Below, in pieces: positions 9,485 through 16,784 of a DNA stretch of 64,000 nt. This DNA is from Actinocorallia populi (GTDB lineage: Bacteria > Actinomycetota > Actinomycetes > Streptosporangiales > Streptosporangiaceae), in contig NZ_PVZV01000004.1 in the NCBI RefSeq assembly GCF_002995495.1, forward strand, positions 558,001 through 622,000. The letters are read 5' to 3'. Below the pieces are notes generated by a model. That model searched no databases. It saw only the letters and a program-made list of their open reading frames with translations, and had not been told where the DNA came from. Every line of letters starts with the position of its first letter. The stretch's first letter is position 1. Made by a program: the position numbers and the translations under genes.

Positions 9485-10777
9485 TCAGCGGGCGAATCCG
9501 CCTCGGCCGGTGCGGCGGTGGGCGCCGCGGAGGGAGCGGCGCTTCAGCTGGAGGGACAAGGTGGCGAAGAGGGCGAGGAGAACGCCGAGCCAGATGGCCT
9601 GGACACGGGCGAGGGTTTCGGTGTTCGCGGTGTCGGGGTTGTTCGCCGCGACCGTTTGGGGGGCGGTCAGCGGCTGGGCGGTGGGGGAGGCGTCCGCCAC
9701 GATCGGGGGAAGCTGCGGGTCGTCCGCGCTCTCCGGCACCGGGGCGCTGGAAAGAGGCGTCTGCGGGATGCCCGAGGGAAGCGTCGAGTAAGGGGTCGTC
9801 GCGGGAGGTGCGGACGACGGGGGAGACGCCGGGGCGGACGGCGCGGACGTGGCGCCGGGGCCGCTCGGCGAAGGGGTGGCCCCGTCCTTCTTCGCGACGG
9901 TCAGGAGGTGGACCACCGTCTTGGCGGGCGCGGTGCGGGCGGAGACGGCCGTCGTGACGCGCAGTGTGCCCGCCGCCTTCGCCGGTACGGACAGCTCGAC
10001 GGGGATGAGCCGTCCCTGCGTCGTGACATCGCCCAGGTCGCAGGCATGCGCGGAGAGCTCGCAGTCGGGAGCGGCCCGGGTACCGCCGTCGGCGGTCACC
10101 TTCAGCCTCCCGGCCTCCGCCGCGGCCCCTGTCGCGTAGACGTGCGCGGTGACCTTCACCTTGTCACCCGGCCGCACATCCGGCTCGGGCACCATGAGAA
10201 CGACATGAAGCTCGGCGGTCCCCGGGGGCCCCACCGGAGCCGCAGGCTCCGTGGGATCAGCGGTCGCCGTGGGGTCGGGGGCCGTCGTGGGGCTGGCGGT
10301 CGCTGTGGGGCCGGCAGTCGTGGTGGGCTCGGCGGTAGTGGTGGGCTTGGCGGTTGTGGTGGGGTCGGCGGATTCCGTGGGACTGCTGGACGTCGTAGGA
10401 CCGGCGGATGTCGTGGGACCGGCGGGAGCGGTGGAACCGGCGGCCGCCGGGGCGGAGGGCACCGCAGGAGACGGGGGCCGGGCGGAGGACACCGAAGCCG
10501 CGGGGCTTGCAGCCGTCCTGGAAGCAGCCGGAGCGGTGAGGTGTGCAGCCGTTGTGGAGGACGCGGGTGACGCAGAGGGCGGCGAAGGCGTGTCCTTCGG
10601 GTCGCGGCCTTCCTCGCCTGTTCGGGCTTCGGGGGCGTTGACGGGAGGAGGGGCGGCTCGGGGCGGGGCGGGGTGCGCCGGGGGGTCCGCCGCGGCGGTG
10701 GCGGTGGCCATCAGGACCAGTGCCGCGGCCAGGGCCGTGCTCGTTCTCGTCGTGCCTGTCCTTCGCGAAAGGCGCAC
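9485..10777 (-). CDS. Mucin-like anchored surface protein with DUF11-like domain
   Basis: 430 residues from GTG 10777, which has GGAGGA 7 nt upstream. Signal peptide at 1-30 (STALAAALVLMATATAAADP). A Pro/Ala/Ser/Thr-rich region follows, containing about ten copies of a six-residue unit of the form AxPTTx (about residues 112-175). A DUF11-like beta domain sits at about 190-300 (VLMVPEPDVRPGDKVKVTAHV, with one Cys pair). A second Ser/Pro-rich stalk leads to a C-terminal transmembrane helix (AIWLGVLLALFATLSLQL) and a basic tail KRRSLRG. There is no LPXTG, so anchoring is by the helix. The Thr-rich repeats are likely targets of protein O-mannosylation. Role unknown, probably cell-surface display. 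Confidence 0.8.
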   Translation of the reverse strand: MRLSRRTGTTRTSTALAAALVLMATATAAADPPAHPAPPRAAPPPVNAPEARTGEEGRDPKDTPSPPSASPASSTTAAHLTAPAASRTAASPAASVSSARPPSPAVPSAPAAAGSTAPAGPTTSAGPTTSSSPTESADPTTTAKPTTTAEPTTTAGPTATASPTTAPDPTATADPTEPAAPVGPPGTAELHVVLMVPEPDVRPGDKVKVTAHVYATGAAAEAGRLKVTADGGTRAAPDCELSAHACDLGDVTTQGRLIPVELSVPAKAAGTLRVTTAVSARTAPAKTVVHLLTVAKKDGATPSPSGPGATSAPSAPASPPSSAPPATTPYSTLPSGIPQTPLSSAPVPESADDPQLPPIVADASPTAQPLTAPQTVAANNPDTANTETLARVQAIWLGVLLALFATLSLQLKRRSLRGAHRRTGRGGFAR

Positions 10778-10888: not shown

Positions 10889-11257
10889 TCAAATGAACTC
10901 CTCGTGGAGTTCCTCCACTTCTGTCCGGGGCGCCCAGGTCTGCCAGACGCCGTGGTCGACGCGGTCGAGGCCGAGGCGCTCGGCGACCGGGCCGCGTCCG
11001 CCGGTGTACTCCACCCGCAGCCACGTCTCGTGCTCGCCGACCACGATGAACCGTTCGCCCCGCCAGCGGCAGACCGTCCGGACGTAACGCAGCTGCTCGA
11101 TCTCCGAGGACGGCACGCTGCGGCGGTACCGGCCCGGCCGCGCCTCGGCGAAACCCTCGGCGGGCTGCGTGGTGTACAGGCGGACCTCGCCTCCCGGCGT
11201 CGGGCTCGCCTCGTACTCCGAGCCCTTCCAGATCGCTACGTAGCCGTCCCGGATCAC
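10889..11257 (-). CDS. Small hypothetical protein coupled to the SseB-repeat gene
   Basis: 122 residues. GTG at 11257 overlaps the TGA of the 1,780-residue gene by 4 nt (GTGA), so the two are translationally coupled. Predicted all-beta/alpha and soluble, with a charged C-terminus (EVEELHEEFI). Visible features are GYVAIWKGSEYEASP, VRLYTTQPAEGF, FIVVGEHETWLRVEY and DHGVWQTWAP. I do not recognise a named family. Strict coupling suggests it binds or acts with the upstream protein, for example as a chaperone or immunity-like partner, but that is inference only. Confidence 0.75.
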   Translation of the reverse strand: MIRDGYVAIWKGSEYEASPTPGGEVRLYTTQPAEGFAEARPGRYRRSVPSSEIEQLRYVRTVCRWRGERFIVVGEHETWLRVEYTGGRGPVAERLGLDRVDHGVWQTWAPRTEVEELHEEFI

Positions 11258-14200
11258 TGCGGGACCTCCTTGGCCTGCTGGGCCGACGTCCAGCTCAGGA
11301 CGTCGGCGTCGTAGACGGCGACCAGGGCGGCCGTCCGGTCCCTGCCGACGAGGTACAGCTCGGCGCCGGTGGGCAGCCGGGTGCTGTCGCTCTTGAACTC
11401 GCGGATGCTGCCGGCCGAGCCGGGCGCGAAGCCGTCGCCTTCGAACGGGCCGTGCTCGACCACCCAGCCGGCCTCGCCCCAGGCCTGCAGGTCCTCCTCG
11501 GTGCGCCCGCCGAACGGCACACGGTAGAGGTCCTCGCAGTGGGCGGGCCAGCGCAGGACGTACACGGACTCGTCGGCGGGGTCGAACGAGGAGCCCTCGT
11601 ACAGCAGCCCGAGCGCCTCGTACAGCTGCACCGGCGTGGTCAGCTCCGCGCAGTCGGCCAGCGGGTGGACGAACCCGCCGACCCGGTCGTAACCCTGCTC
11701 CAGGTACCAGCCGACCTGGCCGTGCGGCAGCACCTTCTGCAGCACCGTCACCCCCGGTCCCTGCTCGCGCGGAGCGGGGACGGCGACGACGGGGTTCTCC
11801 GCCGAGGTCGCCTCGGGCCCGGCCTCCTCGGCCGGCGCCGCGTACGGCTGGACGGGCTCGCGCTGCTGGCCCTGCCGGACGGGCAGCCCGACGGACACCG
11901 CCCACTCGCTGAGCTCGCGCACCTGCCCGCCGGACAGGGACGCCCCGATCCGGGTGCCGGGGTTGAGGTGCAGCGTCCAGTCGGTGCGGCGCCAGTGCGC
12001 GATGAGCTCGGTGAAGTCCACGGCGACGTACCGGACGTCGCCCACGGTCTCCTGCAGGCGCAGGTGCGAGGTGAACACCCGGACGGACGCGCCGGGACCG
12101 GGCGGGCTCGCCGACAGCGCGGCCGACCAGTCGAAGTCGGGGTGCTCGGGCGAGAGGTCCTCGGGCGCGGTGACCGGGACCGGGACGAGCACCTCGGCGG
12201 CGAGCGTCACCCGCAGGAAGTCGTCGGAGTCCCCGGCGAGCACCGCCTCGTCCAGGTCCTGGTCGACCCGGTTGCCGGGTTCGAAGTGCGCCGGGCGCGT
12301 CCGCTGCGGCTCGGCGGGCGCCACGGCGGCGCGCAGCCGGTCGCCCGGCACGGTCAGGTCGATCGGGGTGCCCGGGTTGAGCGCCAGGGACCAGCCGTTC
12401 TCCGGCCAGCTCGCCGCAAGCTCCCGGAAGTCGGGCATGACGAACCGGCACTGGCCGACCGCCTCGTGCATCCAGCGCGGCGAGGTGAACGCCATGATGG
12501 ACGGCTCGCCCTTGAGCGGCACCGGCTGCCACGGGAAGTCGGGCTCGCTCGGCTGGGCGCCCCACGGGGTGTCCGGGTCGGCGGGGATCATCACCTGGGC
12601 GGAGGCGAGCAGCCCGAAGAACGTCTCGGCGTCCCGGCGCTGCGCCGCCTCGTACAGCCGCTGCTCCAGCTCGTTCTGCGGGGCGAAGGCCTCGGGCCGC
12701 TCGGCCAGGAGCTGGTCCGTCCAGGACGACACCAGCGGCAGCTGCTGCCCGGTCAGCGTCGCCGACGCGGGCGTGCCCGGGTTGATGGCCAGCGTCCAGC
12801 CCAGGTCGGGCCAGTGCCGCGCCACGATCGGGAACGGCACCCGCACGTAGTCGACCTGCCCGATCGCGTCCACCAGCCGCTCGGGCGAGGTGAACGCCGG
12901 CACCGCCGGGGTCCCGTCGATCTCCCCCGGCTGCCACGGGAACCCCGCCCGGCTGGGACGCGCCGCCGTGTCCGTGCCCGGCGGCACCGGCAGCAACAAC
13001 TCCGCCCCGATCAGCGCCTTGACCAGCGACTCCTCGTCGGCGGCCCGCACCAGTTCGGTCTCCACCGGATTGGCGGGCAAGAACCGCCCCCGGGCCGCCG
13101 GCTCCTCCACCCCGTCGCCCCCGGCTCCCCCGGCCACCTCGGACGCGCCGGCCGTCGCCGACGCTTCGGGCACGCCCGGCGCTTCAGGCGCTCGAGGCGC
13201 CTCCACCGTCCCGGGCATTCCGAGCGCATCGGTCGTTTCGGATGTATGGGGTGTCGTCGGCGCATCGGGCGTCCCAGGTGTACCAGGCGCCCCGGGTATG
13301 TCAGATGTGCCGGATGTACCGGGTGCTTCGAGCGCATCGGTGGTTTCGGGTGTGTGGGGCGTCGTCGGCATGTCGGGCGTCCCAGGTGTGCCGGTTGTGC
13401 CGAGCGCTTCGGATACACCGGGTGTACCGGGAATATAGGGCGCGCTGGGTGCTTCGTGTGCCCCGGATGTGCCAGGCGTGCTGGGTGCACCGGGTGTATG
13501 GGGAGCATCGGGTGTGCTGGATGTACCGGACGCGCCGGGTGCGTTGGGCGTGCCAGTCGCTTCGGGCGCGCCGGTTGTGCCGAGCGCCTCGGGTACACCG
13601 GACGTGCTGGGTACGCCAGGTGCTTCAGGTATACCGGGTGCGTTGGGTGCGCCAGTCATTTCGGGCGCGCCGGTTGTGCCGAGCGTCTCGGGTGCACCAG
13701 GTGCGCTGGGCATGTCAGGCGCGTTGGGTGCTTCGAGCGCCCCGGGTGTACCGGACATGCCGGATGTATCGGGTATGCCGTGTGCGCCGGGAGCTTCGGG
13801 CGTTCCTGGTGTCTCGGATGTTCCGGGTGTTTTGGTCGCGTCGGCTGTTCCGGGTACGTGGGGCGTTGCGGCCGCCCCGGGCGTCCCGGTTGCGCCGGAT
13901 GCTGCGGGCGCACTGGTCGGTTCAGGTGCGTGGGGTGTCGTCGGCGCATCAGGTGCGCCGCTCGAGCCGGGTGCCCCGGGCATCCCAGGTGCGCCGAGCG
14001 CATCGGGTATGCCGGGCGCGCCATGTGTGCTGGTCGCGCCGGGCGTCCCGGGTGCGCTTGGCGCGTCAGGGGTGCCGTACGCGCCGGGCGCTTCGGGCGC
14101 GCCGGGCGCCGCCGGTGCTTCAGGCGCACCGGTTGCGCCGGGCGTTTCGGGTATCCCGCGTGCTTCGGATGTCCCGATCGCTCCAGGTACGTCGAGTGCG

Positions 14201-16596
14201 TCGGGCGTGCCGGTCGCTCTGGGCGCGGTGGGCGTCCTGTGGGCTTCGGACGCCCCGAGCACTTCAGGCGCGGGCGCTACGGGCGTGTGGGGCGTTCTCA
14301 AGGTTTCGGCGGGCGTGCTGGCCGAGTCGGGCATGCCGGGCGCCGCCGGCGTTTCGGGAGTGCCGGGTGTCCCGAGATCCTCGGACGCATGGGGCGCCTC
14401 GGGCGTTCTGGGGGCACCCGGCGTCCCGGGTGCTCCGGGTACATCCACTATCGGCGGGAATCCGTCGACCTGTGTCTGTGTCGGGTCCTCGACGGAACGG
14501 GCGTGCTCCGCCGCTCCGAAGACCCGGCCCTCCTCGCCCGGCGTCTTTTCTGGAACGCTCCGGTTCCGTTCGGCCTCCCGCTGCGCCAGCAGCGCGGCCA
14601 ACGCGTCCGGCATACCGTCCCGGCCCGTCTCCTGCGCCACGGGCACGCCGGGCGCACGTTCGGTCCCGGTCCCTTCGGGACCACCGAGCCGCGCGGCATC
14701 TTCGACGGCCGGCCGTTCACCGAGCACCGCACCGGACACCTGCCCGGCGTCAGGCCCGCCGTCCGGAACGCTCTCGCGCGGTTCCTCCCGTCCGGGAGCC
14801 GCCTCGGGTCCGCCGGAAGCGGCACCCCTGTGCGAAGCGGACCGTTCGGCGGGCGCGCCGCCTGCGGATCCGGCGAGGCCGGGTGCTTCCCCGGGCGGAG
14901 TCCCCTGTCCGGGGACCACGTTCCCGAGCGTGTCGGTCCGTTCGGCGGGCATGCCGAGCGGACCTTCCGCCGAGGACACCGGCCCGGAGACGCCTGGTGC
15001 CCGAGTGTGCGGAACACCCTGTCCGGGACCCGGGGCGGGTACGGCATGTTCGCCGGGTGCTCCGGCCGTGTTCCCCGTCAGGGGCGAAGGACCGGTGGGG
15101 CGCGATGCTTCCGCGTGCGGAACGCCCTGCCCGGGACCTGCGCCGGGTACGCCCGGTGCGGCATGTTCGCCGGGCGCTCCGGTCGTGCCTTCCGGCAGGG
15201 GCGCAGGACCGGTGAGGCCGGGTGCTTCCGCGTGCGGAGCTCCCGGCCCGGCGGTCGCGTCAGGTGCGTGGGCTTCGGTGTTCCGGCCTGCGTCTGCGGA
15301 CGGATTCTGACCGGCGGGTGCTGCGGCCGTGCCCTCCGGCAGGGGCGCAGAACCGGGAAGGCCGGGTGCTCCCGCCTGCGCGGCGGTCGGTGCGGGGCCG
15401 CCGGGTGTTCCTGCGGGCGGGGTGCTCTGGCCGGGGAGCGTGCCGGGCAGGCCTTCGGCGGCCATCGCAGGCCCGGAGGAGGCGTCGGCCGTCTTTCCGG
15501 CCGAAGGCGTCGGGTCGGCGGAGCCGGGTGCCTCCGCCTGCGGAGCGGCCGTGCCGGGTCCGTCGGCCGGGGCCGTCCGCGGTGAGGATGCGCCAGGACT
15601 CGGCGGCTCCGCGGCGTGGGGGAACGGCTGCTCGGTGGGCGCTCCGGGCGCGCCTGCGACTGGCGGTGTCGGCCCGGCCCCGGTGTTCGGCGCGTCCGGG
15701 TGCGGGGCGCTCTGCCCGGGTGCGGGCTGGGCCGTGCCGGGGAGGACGTCTCCGAGCGGGTCTCCGGACCCGGGAGCCGTGCCGGGCGCGCCTGCGGAAG
15801 GCGTCGGGGCGGATGCGTCGGTGCTCTGCGGCTTCTCCGCGTGGGGGCCTGCCGCTTCGGCGGGCATCCGGGGCACGGACGGAGGCGCCTGTCCGGCGTC
15901 GGCCGGAGAGGGCCGTCCGGGCGAGACGCCCGCGGTGAAGGCCTGTCCGAGAGGCGTGTCGGCCGGATGCCGCGGGCCCTCCGGCGGCAGCGGGGCGCCG
16001 TTGGGCGAGGAGGGCGAGGCGGGGCCGGAGAAATGGCGGAGGGCGGCGAGGACCTCGGCGGCCTGCTGGGAGGTGTCCTGCTGCGCGCCGCTCTCCTGAA
16101 CGGCGGCCAGCGCGTTCTGGACGGCGGGGGAGTCGGGGGTGACGGGCCCGCCGAGGGCGGCCGGGGCCGCGGGGCGGGGGAGGCCCAGCAGGACGGGGCG
16201 GGGGTCTCCCTCGGTGATCTGGCGCAGGAACCAGGAGGGCAGCAGGGCCTGCGGGGGGAGGGTCGCGTCGACGGCCAGCCACCAGTGGGGGTGGGGCCAG
16301 GCCGCGGCCAGGTCGGTGAACCTCAGGCGCAGGTGATGCTGGAAGCGCGGGCCGAGATGGGCGCGCATCGCCTCTGGCGAGGTGTAGGCGAGCACATGGG
16401 TGCGGCCGTCGAACTCGTTGGTCGGCCAGATCGGTGGAAGGGCGTCGGCGAGCACCTGCTCGACGGTCTCCGGGTCGAGCGGGACGACAAGGTCGGCCCC
16501 CGCCAGGACGCGGAAGTACCCCTCGGGGTCAGCGGCGTCGATCGCACCGACCAGAAGGGTTTCCAGTTCGGTGGTGGGCTGCCATTCCTCGGCCAC
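11254..16596 (-). CDS. Giant four-module SseB protein with collagen-like repeat linker
   Basis: 1,780 residues from GTG 16596 with AAGGAG about 10 nt upstream. Module 1 (about 1-135) is an SseB N-terminal-type domain (ETLLVGAIDAADPEGYFRVL, HVLAYTSPEAM). Residues about 136-1165 are low complexity: first Pro/Ala/Gly-rich with 30-40-residue repeats (GAPGEHA...GPGQGVPH), then from about 715 to 1150 a dense Ala/Thr/Pro/Gly tract of short GTPxAPxxP-like units. Three better-conserved modules follow (about 1170-1280, 1300-1410, 1435-1570), each with a VLVPV-like strand, a FTSP segment and an LNPGTP motif. A distinct C-terminal domain (about 1612-1770) includes LPHGQVGWYLEQGYDRVGGF. No signal peptide or membrane segment is visible, so it is probably cytoplasmic. 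SseB modules are of unclear function in actinobacteria. Confidence 0.85.
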   Translation of the reverse strand: MAEEWQPTTELETLLVGAIDAADPEGYFRVLAGADLVVPLDPETVEQVLADALPPIWPTNEFDGRTHVLAYTSPEAMRAHLGPRFQHHLRLRFTDLAAAWPHPHWWLAVDATLPPQALLPSWFLRQITEGDPRPVLLGLPRPAAPAALGGPVTPDSPAVQNALAAVQESGAQQDTSQQAAEVLAALRHFSGPASPSSPNGAPLPPEGPRHPADTPLGQAFTAGVSPGRPSPADAGQAPPSVPRMPAEAAGPHAEKPQSTDASAPTPSAGAPGTAPGSGDPLGDVLPGTAQPAPGQSAPHPDAPNTGAGPTPPVAGAPGAPTEQPFPHAAEPPSPGASSPRTAPADGPGTAAPQAEAPGSADPTPSAGKTADASSGPAMAAEGLPGTLPGQSTPPAGTPGGPAPTAAQAGAPGLPGSAPLPEGTAAAPAGQNPSADAGRNTEAHAPDATAGPGAPHAEAPGLTGPAPLPEGTTGAPGEHAAPGVPGAGPGQGVPHAEASRPTGPSPLTGNTAGAPGEHAVPAPGPGQGVPHTRAPGVSGPVSSAEGPLGMPAERTDTLGNVVPGQGTPPGEAPGLAGSAGGAPAERSASHRGAASGGPEAAPGREEPRESVPDGGPDAGQVSGAVLGERPAVEDAARLGGPEGTGTERAPGVPVAQETGRDGMPDALAALLAQREAERNRSVPEKTPGEEGRVFGAAEHARSVEDPTQTQVDGFPPIVDVPGAPGTPGAPRTPEAPHASEDLGTPGTPETPAAPGMPDSASTPAETLRTPHTPVAPAPEVLGASEAHRTPTAPRATGTPDALDVPGAIGTSEARGIPETPGATGAPEAPAAPGAPEAPGAYGTPDAPSAPGTPGATSTHGAPGIPDALGAPGMPGAPGSSGAPDAPTTPHAPEPTSAPAASGATGTPGAAATPHVPGTADATKTPGTSETPGTPEAPGAHGIPDTSGMSGTPGALEAPNAPDMPSAPGAPETLGTTGAPEMTGAPNAPGIPEAPGVPSTSGVPEALGTTGAPEATGTPNAPGASGTSSTPDAPHTPGAPSTPGTSGAHEAPSAPYIPGTPGVSEALGTTGTPGTPDMPTTPHTPETTDALEAPGTSGTSDIPGAPGTPGTPDAPTTPHTSETTDALGMPGTVEAPRAPEAPGVPEASATAGASEVAGGAGGDGVEEPAARGRFLPANPVETELVRAADEESLVKALIGAELLLPVPPGTDTAARPSRAGFPWQPGEIDGTPAVPAFTSPERLVDAIGQVDYVRVPFPIVARHWPDLGWTLAINPGTPASATLTGQQLPLVSSWTDQLLAERPEAFAPQNELEQRLYEAAQRRDAETFFGLLASAQVMIPADPDTPWGAQPSEPDFPWQPVPLKGEPSIMAFTSPRWMHEAVGQCRFVMPDFRELAASWPENGWSLALNPGTPIDLTVPGDRLRAAVAPAEPQRTRPAHFEPGNRVDQDLDEAVLAGDSDDFLRVTLAAEVLVPVPVTAPEDLSPEHPDFDWSAALSASPPGPGASVRVFTSHLRLQETVGDVRYVAVDFTELIAHWRRTDWTLHLNPGTRIGASLSGGQVRELSEWAVSVGLPVRQGQQREPVQPYAAPAEEAGPEATSAENPVVAVPAPREQGPGVTVLQKVLPHGQVGWYLEQGYDRVGGFVHPLADCAELTTPVQLYEALGLLYEGSSFDPADESVYVLRWPAHCEDLYRVPFGGRTEEDLQAWGEAGWVVEHGPFEGDGFAPGSAGSIREFKSDSTRLPTGAELYLVGRDRTAALVAVYDADVLSWTSAQQAKEVPQ
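13150..14450 (-). repeat. Short-period Ala/Thr/Pro/Gly coding repeat
   Basis: About 430 codons inside the giant SseB gene. Units of 9-12 residues follow patterns such as GTPDAP, GAPGTPG and TTPHTPETTDAL. Two stretches are near-copies (TTPHTPETTDALEAPG and TTPHTSETTDALGMPG). Third positions contain noticeably more A and T than the flanking coding sequence. The opposite strand reads as long spurious Cys/Arg-rich frames. Confidence 0.85.
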
Positions 16597-16784
16597 GTTA
16601 AGCCACTCCTTGGGCGTGCTGCGAACCCGTCTACCTTAATGCGAACCCCATGCGGCCCAGTGCTCAGTCTGTGGACGAACCTCGGAGCCTCCCGCCCGTC
16701 GTGAATCCTCTGCGGGTCAGCCTGCGGAACCCGCCCCGTGCGCCATCATGGGAGCCTTGCGGATCACATCCCTGGAGGAATCTC

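What the first reader, a model, noticed from the sequence alone, without database searches (positions are those of the whole stretch)
11254..16596. Giant protein with four SseB modules split by a 1,000-residue collagen-like tract
Module order is SseB - low-complexity linker (about 1,000 residues) - three SseB modules - a unique C-terminal domain. Each of the last three keeps an LNPGTP signature and a VLVPV strand. SseB modules are normally single and small. No export signal is seen. A large flexible spacer between binding modules suggests a scaffold.
Basis: partly seen in the sequence, partly recalled or inferred. Interest (0 to 1): 0.72.

Follow-up and report, generated by a model that had tools for sequence, protein, structure and literature searches.

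The report
Chaperone-module giant with toxin-like tail pair
A very large bacterial protein carries four predicted chaperone modules on floppy linkers and ends in an undescribed domain that travels with one small partner gene; elsewhere the same domain ends proteins built for a secretion system, like a toxin with its antidote, so here it looks like a former weapon pair turned into a stable cell component.

Summary
Window 11254-16596 (-) encodes 1,780 aa with four PF07179 (SseB) modules, a 1,040-residue low-complexity tract between modules 1 and 2, and a C-terminal domain (CTD) with no significant Pfam or NCBIfam match. The tract is not the key: in 43 complete relatives module order is fixed, but the longest linker lies in any of three places, while the S2-S3 gap is always 10-11 residues. 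The two overlap by 4 bases, P follows the CTD in 54 of 54 loci, and some relatives fuse them. In other families the CTD ends proteins with type VII secretion (T7SS) N-termini, with P or tandem P copies nearby, as toxins and immunity genes are. In 21 of 21 chosen loci of the window's family, SseB-CTD-P sits beside a giant WXG100_2 protein. The window copy is a vertically inherited core gene with no such neighbour found. My reading: a domesticated toxin/immunity-type pair on a tandem-chaperone backbone. Activity is inferred, not shown.

The parts
11254..16596 (-). Giant SseB protein, 1,780 aa, GTG start; AAGGAG at 16606-16611
16204..16584 (-). SseB module S1 (residues 5-131)
   Evidence: Pfam PF07179; limits
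13084..16203 (-). Low-complexity linker (residues 132-1171)
   Evidence: length and place not conserved in relatives
13117..14451 (-). Part of the linker with a P-rich triplet pattern (residues 716-1160); GC3 0.66 against 0.97-0.99 in S2-S4 and CTD
   Evidence: tandem repeats
12718..13083 (-). SseB module S2 (residues 1172-1293)
12313..12687 (-). SseB module S3 (residues 1304-1428); S2-S3 gap is 10-11 residues in 43 of 43 complete relatives
11899..12285 (-). SseB module S4 (residues 1438-1566)
11257..11796 (-). C-terminal domain (CTD), residues 1601-1780; conserved R1682, PF-x-G-x-G at 1717-1722, E1733
   Evidence: no significant Pfam, NCBIfam, PADLOC or PDB match
10889..11257 (-). Partner gene P, 122 aa, GTG start overlapping the CTD stop by 4 bases (GTGA), AAGGAGG at 11265-11271; all-beta model, by shape two SH3-like barrels

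Best explanation
The protein is a cytosolic, multi-module predicted peptide-binding chaperone (four SseB modules, two of them a constantly spaced S2-S3 tandem) that presents a C-terminal domain of T7SS-effector toxin type. P, made from the overlapping gene, binds and controls this domain as an immunity protein would. In sister lineages the same SseB-CTD-P set is encoded next to a giant WXG100_2 (T7SS substrate-type) protein and a YbaB-type gene, and probably handles or arms that substrate. In the Thermomonosporaceae-type clade the set has been domesticated into a vertically inherited core gene that works inside the cell. Shown: module order, constant CTD-P pairing, CTD in proteins with T7SS-type N-termini elsewhere, fixed locus, no CTD swapping in the genomes examined. 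Inferred: chaperone action, CTD-P binding, CTD activity, the role of E1733, domestication.
For: CTD-P pairing: P directly downstream of the CTD in 54 of 54 genome-contig loci and 40 of 41 other CTD matches; the 41 are 36 distinct segments and the one miss is a locus cut at its end. 43 of 43 P matches in 32 of 46 family genomes lie beside a CTD (one search held by eye; the last one). Both in one frame with SseB in 4 of 109 distinct CTDs. T7SS: a protein with Pfam T7SS_signal (3.3e-34) ends in the CTD; a WXG100_2 protein next to two WXG100 genes and an FtsK/SpoIIIE ATPase ends in it; four tandem P domains follow a third such CTD. SseB-CTD-P beside YbaB and WXG100_2 in 21 of 21 chosen loci. SseB and TY-Chap3 were predicted to be peptide-binding chaperones, SseB related to Tic22 (PMC9503650, section 31 read); the window genome's own CTD paralogue carries TY-Chap3. 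Core inheritance: of 34 loci of 20 kb or more, PBP 34, FKBP 33, SpoU-type methylase 32, small putative lipoprotein 32, vWA 30. R1682 and E1733 kept in 41 of 41 long SseB-CTD frames.
Against: No toxicity, binding or enzyme activity is shown. The CTD model is only moderate (mean pLDDT 74, the conserved loop under 50) and has no significant fold match. The local WXG100, WXG100_2 and YbaB profiles find nothing in 37 of 37 giant loci of 15-22 kb, one of which has an FtsK-type match, so a T7SS link for the window copy rests on homology. In the fused CTD-P neighbours of two effector genes E is replaced by V, and in 10 of 10 standalone CTDs by Q, so if E1733 is catalytic a part of the family is not active. 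Strong conservation of P (mean column identity 85%) is unlike an arms race. No PADLOC defence model matches.
Confidence: 0.45

Rival explanations
1. Secretion adaptor. CTD and P form an inert docking pair, and the SseB modules hold an unfolded T7SS substrate and pass it to the secretion ATPase, as targeting factors do for LXG effectors. The window copy serves a substrate encoded elsewhere in the genome.
For: 21 of 21 chosen SseB-CTD-P loci beside YbaB and WXG100_2 genes; WXG100_2 genes of 3,121-3,927 aa in 8 of 8 loci extended (my gene calls); the window genome has six WXG100 matches, five over the cut-off; precedents PMC9600955 (abstract) and EspL, an ESX-1 protein with a predicted YbaB-type domain (PMC6319747, passages).
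Against: A docking pair does not explain why the CTD ends T7SS-type proteins with extra P copies nearby. Only one WXG100_2 match, under the cut-off, in the window genome. No WXG-type or YbaB match in 37 of 37 giant loci.
Confidence: 0.25
2. A plain scaffold: separate binding modules on long flexible arms, no toxin-type function.
For: Four diverged modules, each module position one clade in the tree, which may mean different clients; flexible linkers.
Against: Linker place and length are not conserved and can be nearly absent. Does not explain the CTD-P pair.
Confidence: 0.12
3. An active polymorphic toxin that is itself exported, P being immunity.
For: C-terminal position of the CTD, P downstream, CTD in T7SS-type proteins elsewhere.
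Against: Pfam finds only SseB in the protein and there is no hydrophobic segment; no CTD swapping in 24 of 24 genomes; no orphan P among 43 matches in 46 genomes; core locus.
Confidence: 0.08
4. An intracellular toxin-antitoxin or abortive-infection module whose trigger is sensed by the SseB/TY-Chap modules.
For: Two-gene overlapping cassette; standalone CTD-P pairs without an SseB module (L092, L094, L162); SseB and TY-Chap predicted in conflict systems (PMC9503650).
Against: Toxin-type gene precedes the partner; stable vertical inheritance; no PADLOC model matches 7 of 7 proteins tried.
Confidence: 0.1

Closest known systems
SseB N-terminal domain proteins (PF07179)
   Same: All four modules match over the curated cut-off.
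   Different: Four modules in one chain, long linkers, CTD and P. Other SseB in this genome: one single match on C2 (85 bits) and one in the TY-Chap3 gene on C8 (28.7 bits, not listed).
Polymorphic toxin / immunity systems with T7SS export (PMC3482391, passages read)
   Same: C-terminal domain followed by a dedicated small gene; relatives in T7SS-type proteins; tandem P copies resemble polyimmunity.
   Different: No trafficking domain found, constant CTD, no orphan P in 46 genomes, core locus in this clade.
TY-Chap3 / SseB predicted chaperones of ARG-centred conflict systems (PMC9503650, section 31 read)
   Same: Same chaperone-type modules; the own-genome CTD paralogue locus joins TY-Chap3 to SseB in one gene and to the CTD in the next. 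A vWA gene lies nearby.
   Different: Of 7 window neighbours scanned none matched an ADP-ribosyl glycohydrolase family; one is an Exo_endo_phos protein (PF03372), not one of the phosphatase kinds named in that section. CTD and P are not described in the section read.
T7SS targeting factors and EspL (PMC9600955 abstract, PMC6319747 passages)
   Same: Small genes next to a T7SS substrate gene; YbaB-type neighbour in 21 of 21 chosen SseB-CTD-P loci.
   Different: Different families; no substrate gene found near the window copy.
NF033532 T7SS-associated protein; NF042914 SAV_915
   Same: Partial matches in the SseB region (56.8 and 37.8 bits).
   Different: Both below their curated cut-offs (85 and 40).

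Membership tests
SseB (PF07179) | Profile match over the 21-bit cut-off, per module | tested here: met
   23, 28.2, 33.6, 42.9 bits; 4 stretches
Collagen-like repeat | Glycine at every third residue in long unbroken runs | tested here: not met
   G in at most 47% of triplets in any stretch tried, longest G-x-x run 5
Polymorphic toxin | N-terminal trafficking domain | tested here: not met
   only SseB found by Pfam; no hydrophobic segment
Polymorphic toxin | C-terminal toxin domain swapped between relatives | tested here: not met
   24 of 24 genomes with a strong S1 match carry the same CTD
Polymorphic toxin | Immunity gene directly downstream | tested here: met
   P in 54 of 54 and 40 of 41; only the position was tested, not neutralisation
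Polymorphic toxin | Toxicity neutralised by the immunity protein | not testable with these tools
   needs expression
Polymorphic toxin (CTD relatives in other families) | CTD at the C-terminus of a T7SS-type protein with P nearby | tested here: met
   L118 T7SS_signal 3.3e-34 and L130 WXG100_2 6.3e-9, P; in L131 the N-terminus has no Pfam match
TNT / Ntox40 NAD glycohydrolase | Pfam match | tested here: not met
   not among the families matched by 18 CTDs at E 10, where HMMER's filters drop most matches above 0.1
TNT / Ntox40 NAD glycohydrolase | DRxxG, R, Y motif (from the table of PMC3482391) | tested here: inconclusive
   DRxxG in 55 of 55 giant-clade CTDs but in only 4 of 18 diverse ones, and in none of the T7SS-type rows
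NF033532 lone7para_assoc | Score over 85 bits | tested here: not met
   56.8 bits
Type II toxin-antitoxin | Small two-gene operon, toxin inhibits growth, antitoxin binds it | tested here: inconclusive
   Two-gene overlap seen; activity and binding untested

The most novel reading that the evidence does not exclude
A whole actinobacterial clade has turned a T7SS toxin/immunity pair into a core cellular machine: the toxin-type domain, still with its conserved R/PFxGxG/E set, is carried on an array of four chaperone modules whose spacers drift freely, and its former antidote has become a permanent, slowly evolving subunit.
Probability: 0.35. Interest if true: 0.8.

Novelty: new variant of a known kind. 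Interest (0 to 1): 0.62.

Why it matters
It gives a testable two-protein family (CTD and P), not found described in the searches made here, that links SseB/TY-Chap predicted chaperones to type VII secretion, and a possible case of a toxin/immunity pair made into a core component. It also shows a protein in which module order is fixed while low-complexity spacers of up to 1,473 residues move freely, which bears on what long linkers are for.

Tried and rejected
Spacer as scaffold: rejected as the main idea, because spacer place and length are not conserved. Collagen: rejected. ADP-ribosyltransferase or TNT fold for the CTD: suggested by motif look; no significant match in Pfam (two chance-level families), PDB sequences (best E 0.05 and 0.31) or PDB folds (none at E 0.001 of 83 up to E 10), so not claimed. 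The DRxxG motif given for Ntox40 is in 55 of 55 giant-clade CTDs but in 4 of 18 diverse ones: a lead only. Anti-phage defence: no PADLOC match for 7 of 7 proteins. Mobile element: the L118 CTD has no match in 50,697 phage records (the window CTD was not tried there); in 72,556 plasmid records each of the two CTDs tried matches one record only, an 11.85-Mb Nonomuraea gerenzanensis record. P fold: two SH3-like barrels by shape, but no Foldseek E under 1e-3 in PDB or BFVD.

Limits. The local profiles for YbaB and WXG100_2 were built from L093, L095 and L130, so those loci match by construction; without them 19 of 19 (YbaB) and 20 of 20 (WXG100_2) match. The 21 loci were picked for their SseB-CTD frames, not at random. 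The WXG100 profile was built from five sequences and may miss others. Profiles of A3/A4 contain L118 and L119; their first detection was independent (giant-only profile, 9.2e-12 and 3.8e-8). The 41 CTD matches are 36 distinct segments, and some of their genomes may be the same as genome contigs records. In one search the 47 'SseB-CTD' rows include giants cut short by 3-kb loci; 109 distinct CTDs were counted, segments under 110 residues were dropped. Profile searches of genomes scored only part of the first-look candidates, so 14 of 296 and 6 of 396 genomes are lower bounds. Eleven of 54 relatives were left out of the linker counts: ten begin at the edge of the stretch held, and L063 seems to lack S1 in its frame. 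The synteny count asks only whether a neighbour's relative lies in the locus. Gene calls in scripts are my own GC3-based guesses. Coordinates were compared by eye.
Full report
WHAT IS THERE. The frame 11254-16596 on the minus strand encodes 1,780 residues from a GTG with AAGGAG upstream. Pfam finds SseB (PF07179) in four stretches, E 1.4e-30 for the whole protein, and a six-frame search of the genome finds the same four places over the cut-off. With a family profile the modules are S1 5-131, S2 1172-1293, S3 1304-1428 and S4 1438-1566. They are 23-39% identical to each other. Between S1 and S2 lie about 1,040 low-complexity residues. Only the second part (716-1160) has a triplet pattern, with P at the third place of 60% of triplets; it is not collagen. 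GC at third codon positions falls from 0.97-0.99 in S2-S4 and CTD to 0.79 and 0.66 in the two linker parts, which would fit growth by DNA repeats rather than codon choice (tandem repeats). There is no hydrophobic export segment.

THE LINKER IS NOT THE POINT. A search of genome contigs gave 54 loci, named Actinomadura, Actinocorallia, Thermomonospora and Spirillospora apart from four metagenome assemblies. Of these, 43 hold all four modules and the CTD in one frame; of the other 11, ten begin at the edge of the stretch held and one (L063) seems to lack S1. In the 43, the S2-S3 gap is 10-11 residues, but S1-S2 ranges from 29 to 1,473, S3-S4 from 7 to 1,337 and S4-CTD from 13 to 444. The longest linker is S1-S2 in 19, S3-S4 in 18 and S4-CTD in 6. 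Frame length is 773 to 2,212. In a tree of 66 modules from 12 of these proteins and other SseB, each module position is one group (S2 99/94, S4 100/99, S1 92/85, S3 93/94), so the four modules are old and distinct.

THE CTD AND ITS PARTNER. Residues 1601-1780 have no significant match in Pfam, NCBIfam, PADLOC or PDB sequences. Yet 108 of 150 genomes of the family match it. The next gene, P (10889-11257, 122 aa), overlaps the stop by four bases (GTGA) and has its own AAGGAGG. P follows the CTD in 54 of 54 genome-contig loci and 40 of 41 other CTD matches (36 distinct segments); the miss is a locus cut at its end. Four of 109 distinct CTDs share one frame with SseB and P. Searching P by itself in 46 family genomes gave 43 matches in 32 genomes. 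I compared the coordinates by eye: 42 lie beside a CTD match, and the 43rd (G011) does too once a diverse profile is used. The 14 genomes without P have no CTD match. The window genome has two CTDs and two P genes, paired. AlphaFold2 gives P as a confident, nearly all-beta protein (pLDDT 93.7) whose weak Foldseek matches include tandem Tudor/KOW and single SH3-like barrels (none at E under 1e-3). The CTD model is moderate (pLDDT 74, conserved loop under 50) and has no significant fold match.

WHERE ELSE THE CTD OCCURS. In G249, a 1,231-aa WXG100_2 protein ends in it, next to two WXG100 genes and an FtsK/SpoIIIE ATPase, with a fused CTD-P about 0.5 kb beyond. In G282, a Pro-rich 540-aa protein ends in it and four P domains in two tandem genes follow; its N-terminus has no Pfam match. 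These are layouts of polymorphic toxins and polyimmunity loci as described in PMC3482391 (passages read). They are rare: with a profile search that scored only part of its candidates, 14 of 296 class genomes and 6 of 396 phylum genomes had a CTD match at all. Within the window's family, 21 of 21 loci chosen for short SseB-CTD frames have P, a YbaB-type gene and a WXG100_2 gene in the stretch; eight of eight WXG100_2 genes read to their end are 3,121-3,927 aa. Nonomuraea gerenzanensis shows both this set and a standalone CTD-P pair.

CONSERVED SET. Across 109 distinct CTDs, R1682 and E1733 (window numbering) are kept in 41 of 41 long SseB-CTD frames; in 47 shorter SseB-CTD frames E is 47 of 47 and R 46 of 47; 4 of 4 frames with SseB, CTD and P keep both, as do the three CTDs that end T7SS-type or Pro-rich proteins and two further rows. 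The 10 standalone CTDs all have R, but Q in place of E, and the two fused CTD-P neighbours of effector genes have R but V. This pattern suits a functional residue that some copies have lost, but it is no proof of catalysis. A motif given for the Ntox40/TNT toxins, DRxxG, is in 55 of 55 giant-clade CTDs but in 4 of 18 diverse ones and none of the T7SS-type ones; I treat it as a lead.

THE WINDOW COPY IS A CORE GENE. Of 34 loci of at least 20 kb, relatives of the window's neighbours lie in the stretch as follows: PBP in 34, FKBP in 33, SpoU-type methylase in 32, a small putative lipoprotein (my reading; no Pfam match) in 32 and the vWA protein in 30 (Pfam names). The 24 family genomes with a strong S1 match (E at most 1e-31) are the same 24 that have the strongest CTD matches (E at most 4e-57): no CTD swapping there. 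The local WXG100, WXG100_2 and YbaB profiles match in none of 37 giant loci of 15-22 kb; one has an FtsK-type match. P is highly conserved (85% mean column identity). A relative in another family (G239, L120) has S1, a linker, one module that groups with S2, CTD and P.

MECHANISM. SseB was related to Tic22 and predicted to be a peptide-binding chaperone, and TY-Chap3 to be one too, by sequence and structure modelling in PMC9503650 (section 31 read). The window genome's CTD paralogue carries TY-Chap3. So I read the modules as chaperone units that hold a client, the CTD as an effector-type domain, and P as its controller. In the sister lineages the client is probably the giant WXG100_2 protein. 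For the window clade the client is unknown. I give this 0.45, the pure adaptor reading 0.25.

IN PRINT. Searches of the paper library for 'TY-Chap' (one unrelated paper, though PMC9503650 holds TY-Chap1 to 3), 'enhanced serine sensitivity' with SseB (three papers, listing seen, none on this), SseB with type VII secretion and Streptomyces (none), SseB with YbjN and chaperone (only PMC9503650) and SseB with Actinomadura (none) gave no account of this protein or of the CTD-P pair. One search was too broad to tell (51,191 papers, ten listed, none with 'SseB domain'). One search listed 14 papers on toxins and T7SS, of which I opened PMC9503650 and PMC9600955. Most subscription papers are not in that library.

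Noticed in passing
L090:7898-10959 (own genome C8): Second CTD locus of the window genome: a TY-Chap3-SseB gene ending in what looks like the last part of a CTD, then a TY-Chap3...CTD gene, then P.
   Followed up: partly
L097:7364-9739: A protein with two TY-Chap3 stretches, SseB and a CTD that lacks the conserved middle loop (PFxGxG and E region) but still has P downstream.
   Followed up: no
L092, L094, L105, L107, L108, L109, L114, L162: Standalone CTD-P pairs without SseB; all 10 distinct standalone CTDs counted have Q where the others have E1733.
   Followed up: partly
L134-L152, L093, L095: Recurrent set of SseB-CTD, P, YbaB-type gene and giant WXG100_2 protein of 3-4 thousand residues; a T7SS-linked gene set not found described in the searches made here.
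   Followed up: partly
L001 and L091:7710-8063 (own genome C2): The strongest SseB match of the genome (85 bits) is a single module near genes that look like shikimate-pathway genes (chorismate synthase by recall, not scanned).
   Followed up: no
window 9485-10777: Pro/Ala/Thr-rich protein with an apparent signal and C-terminal membrane segment (by eye), with a relative in only 1 of 34 syntenic loci.
   Followed up: no
L162 (NZ_LT559118.1): An 11.85-Mb record filed as 'plasmid I' of Nonomuraea gerenzanensis looks like a chromosome.
   Followed up: no
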